From positions 248,001-312,000 of the forward strand of contig NZ_JAHXYI010000002.1 in assembly GCF_019970045.1 (NCBI RefSeq): a stretch of 64,000 bases of DNA, given 5' to 3'. The stretch is from Chryseobacterium sp. GVT01B. Lineage in GTDB: Bacteria > Bacteroidota > Bacteroidia > Flavobacteriales > Weeksellaceae. The translations under genes and the position numbers were made by a program. Position 1 is the stretch's first letter, and every line of letters begins with the position of its first letter. The notes below the pieces were generated by a model, which saw nothing but the letters and a program-made list of their open reading frames with translations, did no database searches and was not told the DNA's origin. Shown one piece after another: positions 43,258 to 49,360 of the stretch.

Positions 43258-43291
43258 AATCTTCAGATGATATCGCTCTTTTAAAAGAAAA

Positions 43292-43313
43292 ATCCCTGGA
43301 TTTCTCCGGGGAT
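43292..43313. other. Short hairpin
   Basis: ATCCCTGGA / TCCGGGGAT arms (one wobble) surround a 4-base loop (TTTC). No T-run follows, so a terminator role is unsupported. Confidence 0.3.
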
Positions 43314-43390
43314 ACAAACTTATAATAAAAAATTTTATTAACATTTCAAAATTAATAAATCTCTATTAATTGAATTATGATTAGAGTCAT

Positions 43391-43419
43391 AAAAAAACCT
43401 CCCGTGTCAATAGGGAGGT
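43391..43419 (-). terminator. Minus-strand terminator with no assigned gene
   Basis: A perfect 7-bp stem ACCTCCC (43397-43403) / GGGAGGT (43413-43419) is followed on the minus strand by seven T. The only thing transcribed into it would be the region 43420-43600. Confidence 0.65.
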
Positions 43420-43440
43420 AAAAGTGCAAAATGATATAAG

Positions 43441-43590
43441 TTATAATGATGTGGTGTTAAATAAAGTCTTTCTTAAAAACTCTTTTTTATCATTAACAAT
43501 GCATATGCCATAAACTTCACTGTTTAATGAAATCGTTCTTTTTGTGGTACATTTTCTTTTGACGCAAAAATCCCCGGGAAACCGAGGACA
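43441..43590 (-). other. Short minus-strand open frame before the orphan terminator
   Basis: A 49-codon open frame (ending KKEFLRKTLFNTTSL) stops 22 bases before the terminator stem. It has no ATG, GTG or TTG start after the preceding stop codon at 43591. A second frame starts with ATG at 43591 and runs 24 codons (MSSVSRGFLRQKKMYHKK and on). It may be a gene remnant joined by frameshift, or non-coding RNA. Confidence 0.25.
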
Positions 43591-46316: not shown

Positions 46317-46346
46317 AAAAAAAACCTCCCGAATCATCGGAAGGTT
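46317..46346 (-). terminator. Minus-strand terminator of the candidate small RNA
   Basis: AACCTTCCGA / TCGGGAGGTT read on the minus strand, 4-base loop, followed by eight T. No minus-strand gene lies upstream of it. Confidence 0.7.
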
Positions 46347-46381
46347 ATACTGTAATTTGTCAGAAATATGAAATTTCAATG
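46317..46381 (-). ncRNA. Candidate Crp/Fnr-controlled small RNA (about 65 nt)
   Basis: On the minus strand a -7 box TATATTTG (46385-46392) predicts a start near 46381. A terminator stem (46323-46332 / 46337-46346) with eight following T ends it near 46317. The stem pairs fully only as minus-strand RNA (one U-G wobble; on the plus strand it is a C-A mismatch). There is no open frame. A 16-bp palindrome is centred about 41 bp upstream of the predicted start. Confidence 0.45.
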
Positions 46382-46413
46382 GGCCAAATATAACAAGTGT
46401 TTATATCACAAAA

Positions 46414-46429
46414 TATGATCCGGATCATA
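46414..46429. promoter_or_regulatory. Crp/Fnr-family-like binding site
   Basis: TATGATCCGGATCATA is a perfect 16-bp palindrome containing TGAT-N4-ATCA, the layout of FNR-type sites. It sits near -41 for the predicted minus-strand RNA and about -67 for the plus-strand box at 46475-46482. Confidence 0.5.
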
Positions 46430-46547: not shown

Positions 46548-46555
46548 TACTTTTG
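46548..46555 (+). promoter_or_regulatory. Predicted -7 box close to the Cys/His protein gene
   Basis: TACTTTTG matches TAnnTTTG, 10 bases before the ATG at 46566. It excludes the longer start at 46545. Confidence 0.45.
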
Positions 46556-46565
46556 TTTTTCTATT

Positions 46566-46919
46566 ATGCAAAAATTTCTCAGAGTCTTTTTTGTTTTCTC
46601 TTTACTTCTGATATTTGTTTCTAATGTCAGTGGCATAACAATGTGTTTTGATCACGCTAAACATGCTAAAAGTAAAGTGATTTATAAAAAAGGTTCCAAA
46701 GAAGAGAAAATCCCTACCTTTTCACAGGACGACGAATGTCAGTGTGCGCTTCATATGCACATGAACAATGTTCTCCTTCCTGAACCTTTGAACATGGATT
46801 TTGCCATCAATAGTACGAATGACAACGAAATGCCTCAACCAAAAGCCATTTCATACCGTTGCCTTCTCGACTTCTTCAGCTCCCGGGCTCCCCCATCCTC
46901 ATTTTTCGCGGCAGCTTAA
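46566..46919 (+). CDS. Small secreted Cys/His protein, possible metal-binding
   Basis: This 117-residue protein has an N-terminal hydrophobic signal (FLRVFFVFSLLLIFVSNVSG). Two metal-ligand-like clusters follow: MCFDHAKHAK and ECQCALHMHM. The tail is hydrophobic with a PP pair (SRAPPSSFF). Bacteroidota have small periplasmic proteins of this kind just before TonB receptor genes, and some are linked to copper or other metals. I recognise the type but cannot fix the family. It lies 98 bases upstream of the TonB receptor on the same strand and is probably in the same operon. Confidence 0.65.
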   Translation: MQKFLRVFFVFSLLLIFVSNVSGITMCFDHAKHAKSKVIYKKGSKEEKIPTFSQDDECQCALHMHMNNVLLPEPLNMDFAINSTNDNEMPQPKAISYRCLLDFFSSRAPPSSFFAAA

Positions 46920-47017: not shown

Positions 47018-49360
47018 ATGGGCATTTTCATTGCCCGTACATCCCTTTTCATGATTACCAGTAATTTTAATTATTCGGGAATAATTCATTGTATTTCCCC
47101 AAATTCTGTGAAACTTTTAAGTCTAAGTTTCCTTACCGCATCTTCATTTCTATATGCTCAGTCCCGTTTTGATGATTCTTTATCTACAGTGGTACAAACG
47201 GTTGAGATCATCGGAAGAAAGTCTAAAGATTATACATCGGACTACTCTTTCGCTGCCACTAAGATTGCTATGAAAAATAAAGATCTTCCTTTAACTCTTA
47301 ATACGGTTACCAAGGAGCTGATCACCGACCGCCAGGCCTTTCAGCTTGGAGAGGTTATGAAAAACCTGAACGGAGTCTCTCCTTCCAGTTATTACAACCA
47401 ATACAACATCCGTGGCATCAGCCAAAATGAAGAAGGACAGATTATCAATGGAATGCGCACAAGGCAGTATTATTTTCTACAGCCTATGACTTCCAATATT
47501 GAGCGTGTGGAAATTTTCAAAGGTCCTGCAAGCATTACCATGTCCAGTGTAGATCCCGGAGGAACAATTAATATGGTTACCAAAAAACCGTTGTCAACTT
47601 CCCGTCACGAGATCAGTTCATCAGGAGGCAGTTTTGATACTTACCGTATTACCACAGATCTTACAGGTCCTTTAAATAAGAGCAAAACCCTGTTGTATCG
47701 CTTCAATGGAGCTTACCAAAATGCTCATTCGTTCAGGGATCACGTCAAAAATAGTGGGATTCTGATCTCTCCTTCCATCACCTTTGTTCCCAATGAAAAA
47801 ACATCTGTGAATGTAGAAATGATTTTCAATGATCTTTATGGAAATCTGGACAGAGGGCAACCTATTTTCGGTGCTGTTGCAGGAAAAACAGATTTGTACA
47901 GTACACCAAGATCTTTGAATCTGGGAGCTCCCGATGATTTTTTTAAAACCAGGGAATTAATTTTAATGGGAAGTGTTGCCCATCACTTTAATCAATTTAT
48001 CAGCTTTAATGCTTCTTATATGAAGCAATACTGGAGAGAAAATCTGCAGGAACACCGAACCACCAATTCTTTTGTCCCCGATATGGATAACAAACCGGTT
48101 TCCAGTCTTGCAATGATGCAGTTTGTACAAAGGAATCAAAACTGGGCAACAGATAATATCAATGCTTATTTTAATTTTAAATTCAAAACCGGTGCTGTTC
48201 AGCATCAGGCTTTGATAGGCTATGACAGTCAGATCTGGGAAAAACGCAAAGGCGGGCAGCAAAATGCCGCAAGAGGTTTTCTTTTAAAAAACGGTGCTGT
48301 AGCTTCTTCTTACAAACCAGCCAATGCTGCTGATTATCAGACTTTCAATTACAACGGAATACTCATTCCAAAGCCCAATGTTACTCCTTTTGATCTGAAT
48401 CCGGGTGCAGAAAATTATCAGGGTAATGATTTTAATACTTTGAATATCATGACTCCTCTGCCTTCTGCTCTTACAACCACACATGCAGCTTATATCCAGC
48501 ATTTTTTCACGTGGAAAAAGTTCAAAATTTTATCAGGAATACGTCAGGAATGGTTTCAGGACATTACCAATTTCAAGGAATCCAATGAGTCTTCATTCCG
48601 GAATAATAAACTTCTGTACAGATTCGGGATCACCTATAGTCTTACGGATAACATTAATTTTTATGGAACTTACCTTACCGGATTTCAGCCACAATCCAAT
48701 ACGGTGACATTAATGCCCAATACCTCCAGCCTTACAGGATCTGCTGCCAGATTTAAACCTTTGACATCAGATCTTAAAGAACTGGGAATGAAAGCACAGC
48801 TTTTTGGAAAAATCTCATTGAATCTTGCTGTGTATGAGATCAATCAGAGAAATATTTTAATCAATGCCAACAATCCTTCGGAACCTGATGAACTTGTACA
48901 GCGAGGGGCCGACCGGAGTCGGGGATTTGAAGCTGAGATTTCGGGGCAGATTCTTCCTCAATGGCATATTTACGGAGGTTACAGCTATATTGATGCTAAA
49001 ATACTGGATGATACGAATCCTGATCTTGTGGGGAAAAGGAAAGAAAATACTTCTAAAAATTCTTTCAATATCTGGACACGCTACAACTTTTCAACCATAG
49101 AGCTTATAAAAGAATTTGGAATTGGAGCGGGAATGCTTTATCAAAGTTCAAAAGTACCATGGTTTACAAGAAGTTTTGAGCTTCCGGCATATACTACCAT
49201 AGACGCTGCATTGTATTATACTCCGGCAAAATCTGTTCAGCTAGCTTTTAACCTGAATAATATTACCAATAAGGTCTACTGGATCGGCGCTCAGAATTAC
49301 TTAAGACTATTTCCAGGCACACCAAGAAACTATTTACTAACTGCTACTTATAAATTTTAA
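47018..49360 (+). CDS. TonB-dependent siderophore-type receptor
   Basis: This outer-membrane receptor of up to 780 residues has a signal peptide ending FLYAQ near residue 48. The start could be 47018 or the ATG at 47051, which gives a more normal signal. The plug domain (about 60-200) has NTVTKELITDRQAFQLGEVM, YNIRGISQNEEGQIINGMR, VEIFKGPASITMSSVDPGGTINMVTKKP. The barrel ends in NYLLTATYKF. These are features of FhuA/FpvA-type receptors. Three ABC genes follow immediately, so receptor and ABC system probably serve one substrate. Substrate unknown; ferric siderophore or metal chelate by family. Confidence 0.88.
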   Translation: MGIFIARTSLFMITSNFNYSGIIHCISPNSVKLLSLSFLTASSFLYAQSRFDDSLSTVVQTVEIIGRKSKDYTSDYSFAATKIAMKNKDLPLTLNTVTKELITDRQAFQLGEVMKNLNGVSPSSYYNQYNIRGISQNEEGQIINGMRTRQYYFLQPMTSNIERVEIFKGPASITMSSVDPGGTINMVTKKPLSTSRHEISSSGGSFDTYRITTDLTGPLNKSKTLLYRFNGAYQNAHSFRDHVKNSGILISPSITFVPNEKTSVNVEMIFNDLYGNLDRGQPIFGAVAGKTDLYSTPRSLNLGAPDDFFKTRELILMGSVAHHFNQFISFNASYMKQYWRENLQEHRTTNSFVPDMDNKPVSSLAMMQFVQRNQNWATDNINAYFNFKFKTGAVQHQALIGYDSQIWEKRKGGQQNAARGFLLKNGAVASSYKPANAADYQTFNYNGILIPKPNVTPFDLNPGAENYQGNDFNTLNIMTPLPSALTTTHAAYIQHFFTWKKFKILSGIRQEWFQDITNFKESNESSFRNNKLLYRFGITYSLTDNINFYGTYLTGFQPQSNTVTLMPNTSSLTGSAARFKPLTSDLKELGMKAQLFGKISLNLAVYEINQRNILINANNPSEPDELVQRGADRSRGFEAEISGQILPQWHIYGGYSYIDAKILDDTNPDLVGKRKENTSKNSFNIWTRYNFSTIELIKEFGIGAGMLYQSSKVPWFTRSFELPAYTTIDAALYYTPAKSVQLAFNLNNITNKVYWIGAQNYLRLFPGTPRNYLLTATYKF

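What the first reader, a model, noticed from the sequence alone, without database searches (positions are those of the whole stretch)
46317..46429. Candidate Crp/Fnr-regulated small RNA upstream of the lysozyme gene
A perfect palindrome TATGATCCGGATCATA (FNR-type TGAT-N4-ATCA) is followed on the minus strand by an exact TAnnTTTG box, with its centre at about -41 (the class II activator position). A terminator whose stem pairs properly only as minus-strand RNA comes about 35-64 nt after the predicted start. There is no open frame between. Together they read as a short regulatory RNA of about 65 nt, an arrangement reminiscent of the FNR-controlled FnrS RNA of enterobacteria, with no sequence relation claimed.
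Basis: partly seen in the sequence, partly recalled or inferred. Interest (0 to 1): 0.7.

Follow-up and report, generated by a model that had tools for sequence, protein, structure and literature searches.

The report
Conserved Crp/Fnr-box small RNA in Chryseobacterium

Summary
On the minus strand a perfect palindrome (46414-46429) lies 21 nt before a flavobacterial -7 box (46385-46392), so its centre is at -41.5, the class II activator position. A terminator follows (stem 46323-46346, U-tract to 46317), giving a predicted RNA of about 64 nt. The RNA recurs in 24 of 148 sampled same-genus genomes (own included), 24 of 24 with palindrome and hairpin, 23 with an exact box, while flanks and neighbours change (lysozyme gene near 10 of 29 loci). 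It reads as an independent small-RNA gene, not a lysozyme leader.

Palindrome plus box at 21-22 nt is a real module: 176 sites in 60 genomes, 0 for the reversed control. Site number follows the number of genes of an expanded Crp/Fnr subfamily (helix VETVIR, no FNR-type cysteine motif seen), and 47 of 150 listed sites lie within 2 kb of such a gene (0.4 expected). Two further conserved RNA-like units follow it, one in this window (43284-43342). In three loci of two other genera it precedes nosZ, nor-like and sdh genes.

Small RNA: supported. Crp/Fnr control: well supported by comparison. Oxygen control 'like FnrS': not shown. Targets: not found. No expression data.

The parts
46414..46429 (-). 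Operator: perfect palindrome TATGATCCGGATCATA (class TATGAY-N4-RTCATA), centre at -41.5
   Evidence: arms 0.96 mean pairwise identity over 24 loci (partly by construction, loci were anchored on it), centre 0.47
46385..46392 (-). -7 box TATATTTG (TAnnTTTG), 21 nt after the palindrome
   Evidence: extent -12 to -5 from PMC9723704; identity 0.95 over 24 loci
46317..46380 (-). Predicted small RNA 'sRNA1', about 64 nt (unpaired 5' part AUUGAAAUUUCAUAUUUCUGACAAAUUACAGUAU, then terminator)
   Evidence: BLAST and covariance model R1 find it in the same 24 of 148 genus genomes (19 of these built the model), alignment A1, fold z = -3.8. No expression data
46323..46346 (-). Intrinsic terminator hairpin, U-tract continues to 46317
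   Evidence: 9 pairs, 95.3% of cells paired, 3 pairs (4 cells) with changes on both sides
43376..43391 (-). Second copy of the operator (TATGACTCTAATCATA) in the window
43347..43354 (-). -7 box TAATTTTG of the second unit, 21 nt after the palindrome
43284..43342 (-). Predicted second small RNA 'sRNA2' with terminator ATCCCCGGAGAAATCCAGGGAT and a T-rich tail
   Evidence: same unit in L004/L226 (one genome), L015, L020, L223 and L224

Best explanation
A stand-alone gene for a ~64-nt regulatory RNA. A dimeric Crp/Fnr-superfamily activator, most likely one of the eight 'VETVIR-type' paralogues of this genome, binds the palindrome centred at -41.5 and contacts RNA polymerase at the TAnnTTTG promoter (class II activation). 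The transcript ends at its own terminator. Its strongly conserved unpaired 5' half (UGAAA(A)UUUCAUAUUUCUGACAAAUUACA) most likely acts in trans by base pairing with mRNAs; its complement contains AUAUGAAA, which looks like a translation start. It is one of several RNAs and genes behind the same kind of box. Shown by comparison: the conserved block, its promoter and terminator, the fixed operator spacing, the association with the Crp/Fnr subfamily. Inferred: expression, which paralogue acts, the signal, base pairing, and all targets.
For: BLAST with the block: 32 of 148 genus genomes (own included) at E<=1e-3; 30 loci fetched, 24 of them with the exact palindrome. In six of these (L016, L021, L022, L023, L025, L026) the alignment began after the palindrome's end, yet it is there. 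Model R1, built without palindrome and box from 19 of the 24 loci, finds the same 24 at E<1e-6 (19 by construction) and 4 new genus genomes, 4 of 4 with palindrome. Identity: arms 0.96, box 0.95, unpaired RNA 0.80, hairpin 0.85; palindrome centre 0.47, spacer 0.42, flanks 0.29-0.37. With gaps of 20-32 allowed there are 196 sites, with 21-22 there are 176. Site count against Crp-subfamily count in 60 genomes: Spearman 0.71; sites in 0 of 4 genomes without the subfamily (E<=1e-20), in 52 of 56 with it. 47 of 150 listed sites within 2 kb of a listed subfamily gene, 0.39 expected. Helix: V where CRP has R180, E181 and R185 kept, which fits the rule R180-G3, E181-A6 of PMC1274295 (passages). Terminator 18-50 nt after the box: 7 of 33 palindrome boxes, 1 of 100 other TAnnTTTG boxes; outside reading frames 7 of 27 against 1 of 50, and with a second set of loci added 9 of 32 against 2 of 101.
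Against: No transcript has been seen. The loci and genomes are related, so counts are not independent. The hairpin has only 4 cells with changes on both sides, and 168 of 500 shuffles reach its number of pair types. No target: the best duplex in 204 start regions of this genome was matched or beaten by 22 of 40 shuffled RNAs; an 18-mer of the core with up to 3 mismatches gave no convincing start-codon site in the 30 of 56 places fetched. Four genomes with the Crp subfamily have no exact site. Other Crp/Fnr proteins of this genome (for example L111, T-E-S-A-I-R) could also read the box, and the box occurs in other genera, where I did not look for the subfamily.
Confidence: 0.77

Rival explanations
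1. FnrS-like anaerobic RNA: the activator is an oxygen- or NO-responsive FNR/DNR-type protein and the RNA represses aerobic functions.
For: Half-site spacing is FNR-like (TGAT-N4-ATCA). In the three loci inspected from two other genera the same unit precedes a cytochrome c plus NosZ (L209), a cytochrome c plus a COX1-family gene, NorC/NorB-like by my reading (L210), and an Sdh cytochrome plus FAD subunit (L211). In this genome one palindrome lies near a molybdopterin oxidoreductase and a cNMP-domain regulator (L040), though without an exact -7 box at the class II distance.
Against: The candidate regulators of this genome show no CX2-3CX5C motif by eye. Genus neighbours of the box include catalase, DUF892, DUF2383, CinA and small lipoproteins. 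No Rfam FnrS match.
Confidence: 0.25
2. A leader or attenuator of the downstream lysozyme gene: the terminator controls read-through into 46099-45659.
For: In this genome the lysozyme gene is the next gene on the same strand, about 220 nt after the terminator.
Against: Only 10 of 29 sRNA1 loci hold the lysozyme gene within about 1.5 kb, while the RNA is kept in the others. Downstream flanks are at 0.29-0.30 identity.
Confidence: 0.04
3. The block serves a short peptide: the TTG frame MKFHISDKLQYNLPMIREVFF is translated.
For: An open TTG frame of 34 codons in this genome, the MKFHISDKLQ frame kept in 9 of 24 sequences.
Against: In 7 of 24 it stops after 6 codons because of a 1-nt insertion and in 5 of 24 there is no start, while the RNA sequence stays nearly the same. 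In this genome the frame runs through the terminator.
Confidence: 0.03
4. The palindrome serves the divergent plus-strand genes (46566-46919, no Pfam family, and TonB receptor 47018-49360), and the minus-strand RNA is incidental.
For: A plus-strand TACTTTTG lies at 46548-46555, about 120 nt from the palindrome.
Against: For this palindrome the class II distance exists only on the minus side; the palindrome stays with the RNA when neighbours change.
Confidence: 0.06

Closest known systems
FnrS of enterobacteria (passages of PMC10993149; the primary papers recalled)
   Same: Short RNA whose promoter appears to be activated by a Crp/Fnr-superfamily protein; own terminator (for FnrS recalled)
   Different: No Rfam match; candidate regulators without the FNR cysteine motif; signal and targets unknown; several unrelated RNAs share the box
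Rfp18 and other small RNAs of Flavobacterium psychrophilum (PMC9723704: outline, abstract and passages)
   Same: Small RNA of a flavobacterium, conserved in a genus; TAnnTTTG is the main promoter box there
   Different: Rfp18 is described as strongly structured, pairing through its third stem-loop, and linked to proteases; sRNA1 has one clear hairpin and a Crp/Fnr-type operator. Sequences were not compared (supplements not readable here); the main text has no 'Crp' or 'Fnr'
DNR, HcpR and NnrR regulators and their boxes (PMC1274295, passages)
   Same: Crp/Fnr superfamily without the FNR cysteine motif, TGAY-N4-RTCA-like core, E at helix position 181 linked to A6
   Different: Box here begins TATGAY rather than TTGAT; helix VETVIR; 0 to 11 copies per genome in the genus sample

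Membership tests
FnrS (as an RNA family) | Match to the Rfam covariance model | tested here: not met
   No Rfam match in the window at gathering score; at E<=1 the only hit over the block was MicC, 30.5 bits against a cut-off of 90
FnrS (as a way of working) | Induced without oxygen through FNR | not testable with these tools
   No expression data; promoter architecture compatible
FnrS (as a way of working) | Represses several mRNAs by base pairing | tested here: inconclusive
   No target better than controls in 204 start regions; the whole genome was not available as a file
Class II Crp/Fnr-dependent promoter | Two-fold symmetric site centred near -41.5 | tested here: met
Class II Crp/Fnr-dependent promoter | Regulator with a matching recognition helix in the genome | tested here: met
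   Eight paralogues with (R/C)(V/E)ET(V/A)IR; helix of one aligned to CRP
Class II Crp/Fnr-dependent promoter | Regulator binds and activates | not testable with these tools
   Needs gel shift and reporter assays
FNR proper (oxygen-sensing [4Fe-4S]) | N-terminal cysteine cluster in the regulator | tested here: not met
   By eye on the eight sequences printed; the motif itself is recalled
Intrinsically terminated bacterial small RNA | Own promoter, own terminator, no conserved reading frame, independent of neighbours | tested here: met
   (sequence evidence only)
Hfq-dependent small RNA | Hfq present and bound | not tested
   An hfq gene was not searched for

The most novel reading that the evidence does not exclude
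In Chryseobacterium an expanded family of Crp/Fnr activators runs a stress network (catalase, DUF892 and DUF2383 proteins, small lipoproteins, the activators themselves) whose output includes a set of unrelated ~60-nt RNAs under one shared operator-promoter cassette, so that a transcription-factor family, rather than an alternative sigma factor, recruits new small RNAs again and again.
Probability: 0.35. Interest if true: 0.75.

Novelty: new member of a known kind. Interest (0 to 1): 0.58.

Why it matters
Small-RNA control is little known in Bacteroidota (recalled). Here operator, promoter, RNA and terminator can be read as one cassette, the number of such operators follows a specific regulator subfamily, and three RNA families recur across Chryseobacterium genomes. 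That makes the regulator, the signal and the targets directly testable, and it gives a simple pattern for finding further small RNAs in this group.

Tried and rejected
Targets: an 18-mer complementary to the core with up to 3 mismatches gave 56 places against 34 for the reversed control in this genome, one of the 56 being sRNA1's own opposite strand. Of the 30 with fetched loci none is a convincing start-codon match; for one (L158, near a contig end) my script did not find the site; 26 were not fetched. Duplex scan of 204 start regions, many from loci chosen by that same 18-mer: best -20.7 kcal/mol, matched or beaten by 22 of 40 letter-shuffled RNAs. Rejected.

Wide distribution of sRNA1: at E<=0.01 the model rings in 70 of 148 genus and 52 of 197 family genomes. 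Of the weaker matches I could inspect, L097-L102, L107, L109 and L110 lack the exact palindrome with box; L108 and G016:C7 (L227) have it; the others were not inspected. No match outside the genus was better than E = 9e-4. I take most of these for terminator look-alikes. The six weak BLAST loci L027-L032 lack the palindrome; two more weak hits (G034, G115) were not fetched.

Palindromes not at class II distance were set aside: L033, L034 and L035 (the last two inside reading frames), L040, and L041 and L042 before TonB receptors with gaps of 31 and 27.

Lysozyme leader and peptide readings: rejected as stated under rivals. MicC match: taken for chance. The first terminator control included boxes inside genes; I repeated it outside reading frames.

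Literature: the listings (titles and abstract starts of the rows shown; several lists were cut) gave no paper on this RNA or this box in Chryseobacterium; the library holds open-licence papers only.

Full report
What is there. The window is a stretch of a 5.15-Mb genome (contig C22, 248001-312000). Exact matches to a 22-base core of the RNA in the named collection are all titled Chryseobacterium (15 of 15 records, including C. indologenes AA5, C. cucumeris, C. culicis, C. rhizoplanae, C. sediminis, C. candidae, C. aquifrigidense, C. phosphatilyticum and C. panacisoli), so I take the window to be from that genus. On the minus strand the order is: palindrome 46429-46414, 21 nt, TATATTTG 46392-46385, predicted start 46380, about 34 unpaired nucleotides, terminator stem 46346-46323, U-tract to 46317. 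The published extent of the flavobacterial -7 box is -12 to -5 (PMC9723704, passage), which puts the palindrome centre at -41.5.

Is it conserved as a unit? BLAST of the 181-bp block found matches in 32 of 148 same-genus genomes, the own one included, at E<=1e-3. I had loci for 30; 24 carry the exact palindrome, 23 of them with an exact TAnnTTTG (L026 has TATCTTTC), 11 at 21 nt and 13 at 22 nt. The other 6 (L027-L032) are weak and carry no palindrome. Because the query contained the palindrome, the best test is the loci whose alignment began after its end: L016, L021, L022, L023, L025 and L026, six of six with palindrome. A covariance model built without palindrome or box from 19 of the 24 loci found the same 24 genomes at E<1e-6 (19 by construction) and four more genus genomes in the family search, four of four with the palindrome. 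Outside the genus nothing was better than E = 9e-4.

Mean pairwise identity over the 24 loci is 0.96 in the palindrome arms, 0.47 in its centre, 0.42 in the spacer, 0.95 in the box, 0.80 in the unpaired RNA, 0.85 in the hairpin, and 0.29-0.37 in the flanks; for L011 and L013-L026 alone it is 0.95, 0.51, 0.39, 0.92, 0.71, 0.79 and 0.30-0.34 (ungapped, anchored on palindrome, box and hairpin, so the first figures are partly by construction). Operator arms, box, RNA and hairpin are kept and the rest is free, as expected of a gene with an operator. The stem pairs in 95.3% of cells, three of nine pairs show changes on both sides (four cells), no slid version shows any, and the number of pair types is not above shuffles. 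The RNA of this window folds with z = -3.8. The lysozyme gene is found within about 1.5 kb in 10 of 29 loci. The TTG frame in the RNA is kept in 9 of 24 sequences and changed, cut short or absent in the other 15.

The operator-promoter module. TATGAYNNNNRTCATA-N20-32-TANNTTTG occurs 196 times in 60 genus genomes, in 55 of them; the reversed control 3 times. With the gap fixed at 21-22 there are 176, in 52 of 60 genomes, control 0, so about 90% of the sites use 2 of 13 allowed distances. In the family sample 126 of 197 genomes and 17 of 33 genera have at least one, control 0. This genome has four: sRNA1, sRNA2 (window 43391 to about 43284), sRNA3 (L037) and one before a 74-codon frame, divergent from a Crp/Fnr gene. 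Three of the four run into a terminator within about 70 nt of the box. In the 30 loci brought in by the pattern alone, 7 of 33 palindrome boxes have a terminator 18-50 nt after the box against 1 of 100 other TAnnTTTG boxes; outside reading frames 7 of 27 against 1 of 50 (p = 0.002), and with 30 loci fetched by a Crp protein added 9 of 32 against 2 of 101 (p = 4e-5). sRNA2 and sRNA3 recur too: sRNA2 in L038, L004/L226, L015, L020, L223 and L224 (L225, fetched for the same reason, is not one); sRNA3 in L037, L216-L219, L221 and L222 (in L220 the start is kept and the terminator is gone).

Which regulator? This genome has eight matches at E<=1e-20 to one Crp/Fnr protein (L036:1712-2302), and eight of its Crp-HTH proteins carry the helix G-L-(R/C)-(V/E)-E-T-(V/A)-I-R (five of the eight tied together by place, the other places were not listed). 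Aligned with CRP, R180 is V in the query, E181 and R185 are kept. Rodionov and co-workers (PMC1274295, passages) report that R180 goes with G3 and E181 with A6 of the half-site; the box here has A3 and A6, which fits. In 60 genomes the number of sites follows the number of subfamily genes (Spearman 0.71); none of the 4 genomes without the subfamily has a site, 52 of 56 with it do. Of the 150 sites listed, 47 lie within 2 kb of one of the listed subfamily genes, 0.39 expected for random places in a 4.7-Mb genome (both lists were cut by the tool). Relatedness of the genomes inflates the first two figures. Other Crp/Fnr proteins of the genome cannot be excluded.

What does the regulon do? Genes found behind class II boxes in other Chryseobacterium genomes include Crp/Fnr genes (L045, L047, L048, L051), small lipoproteins of 66-85 residues (the one tested, L067, has no Pfam or NCBIfam match), catalase (L044, L052; L052 best fits HPII), DUF892 (L213, and L203 in this genome), DUF2383 (L049), CinA (L043, L069), an alcohol dehydrogenase (L061), an alpha-amylase domain (L069), a CcoN-like gene (L046) and a class II cAMP phosphodiesterase (L066). 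Several lie hundreds of bases up to about 1 kb downstream, and their link to the box is inference. The mix recalls general stress regulons. In the three loci inspected from two other genera the unit precedes a cytochrome c and NosZ (L209), a cytochrome c and a COX1-family gene that I read as NorC/NorB-like (L210; NCBIfam gives only weak ccoN matches), and Sdh genes (L211), which recalls FNR/DNR. The box may therefore be read by different relatives of the superfamily for different signals, and for sRNA1 the signal stays open.

How the RNA works. The most conserved unpaired part is the 5' half; its complement contains AUAUGAAA, a plausible translation start, so pairing over start codons is my best guess. 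I found no target, and the RNA could act otherwise.

Verdict. The small RNA and its Crp/Fnr-type control are well supported by comparison, not by experiment; the likeness to FnrS is one of architecture only, and oxygen control is unproven.

Noticed in passing
window 43284-43391, minus strand: A second operator-promoter-RNA-terminator unit of the same kind (sRNA2), found again in several relatives.
   Followed up: yes
L037:1400-1516 minus (G000:C22, operator 148219-148234): A third recurring unit (sRNA3); in one relative (L220) the terminator has been replaced by unrelated sequence.
   Followed up: yes
window 43395-43560, minus strand; also downstream of sRNA1 in L011, L013, L022, L023: A recurring stretch ACCACAAAA...GGCATAnnCATTG...AACACCAC(A/G)TCAT...terminator, next to sRNA1 or sRNA2 in several genomes; perhaps another RNA with a sigma-54-like start (TGGCAT-N5-TTG, motif recalled). 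Not identified.
   Followed up: partly
L227 (G016:C7:86440-86720), L006:2511 plus, L009:746 minus: Further short RNAs behind the box TATGACTACAGTCATA; the L227 one looks like a diverged paralogue of sRNA1.
   Followed up: partly
L203 (G000:C22 near 15525): Two Crp/Fnr genes in a row followed at once by a class II box and a DUF892 gene plus two small genes without Pfam families.
   Followed up: partly
L046, L049, L052, L056, L058, L067, L071, L072: Small lipoprotein-like genes of 69-85 residues (hydrophobic start, then SCKK or similar, rich in D and T) 25-66 nt behind the class II box; several have similar 5' leaders with CACAAAAT.
   Followed up: no
L041, L042, L050, L064, L070: Promoters with the same palindrome but 27-31 nt from the box, recurring between genomes; L041 and L042 precede TonB receptors. 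A different arrangement, perhaps a different protein or repression.
   Followed up: no
G000:C4:85178-85189 (L001): The only other exact TGATCCGGATCA of this genome, about 2 kb from a Crp/Fnr gene (C4:82648-83241); surroundings not inspected.
   Followed up: no
PMC13209784 (passages): In a Chryseobacterium cadmium RNA-seq study the table lists 'sRNA' reads at about 9% in three samples and about 40% in three others, while the text calls the share very low; worth re-analysis at these loci.
   Followed up: no
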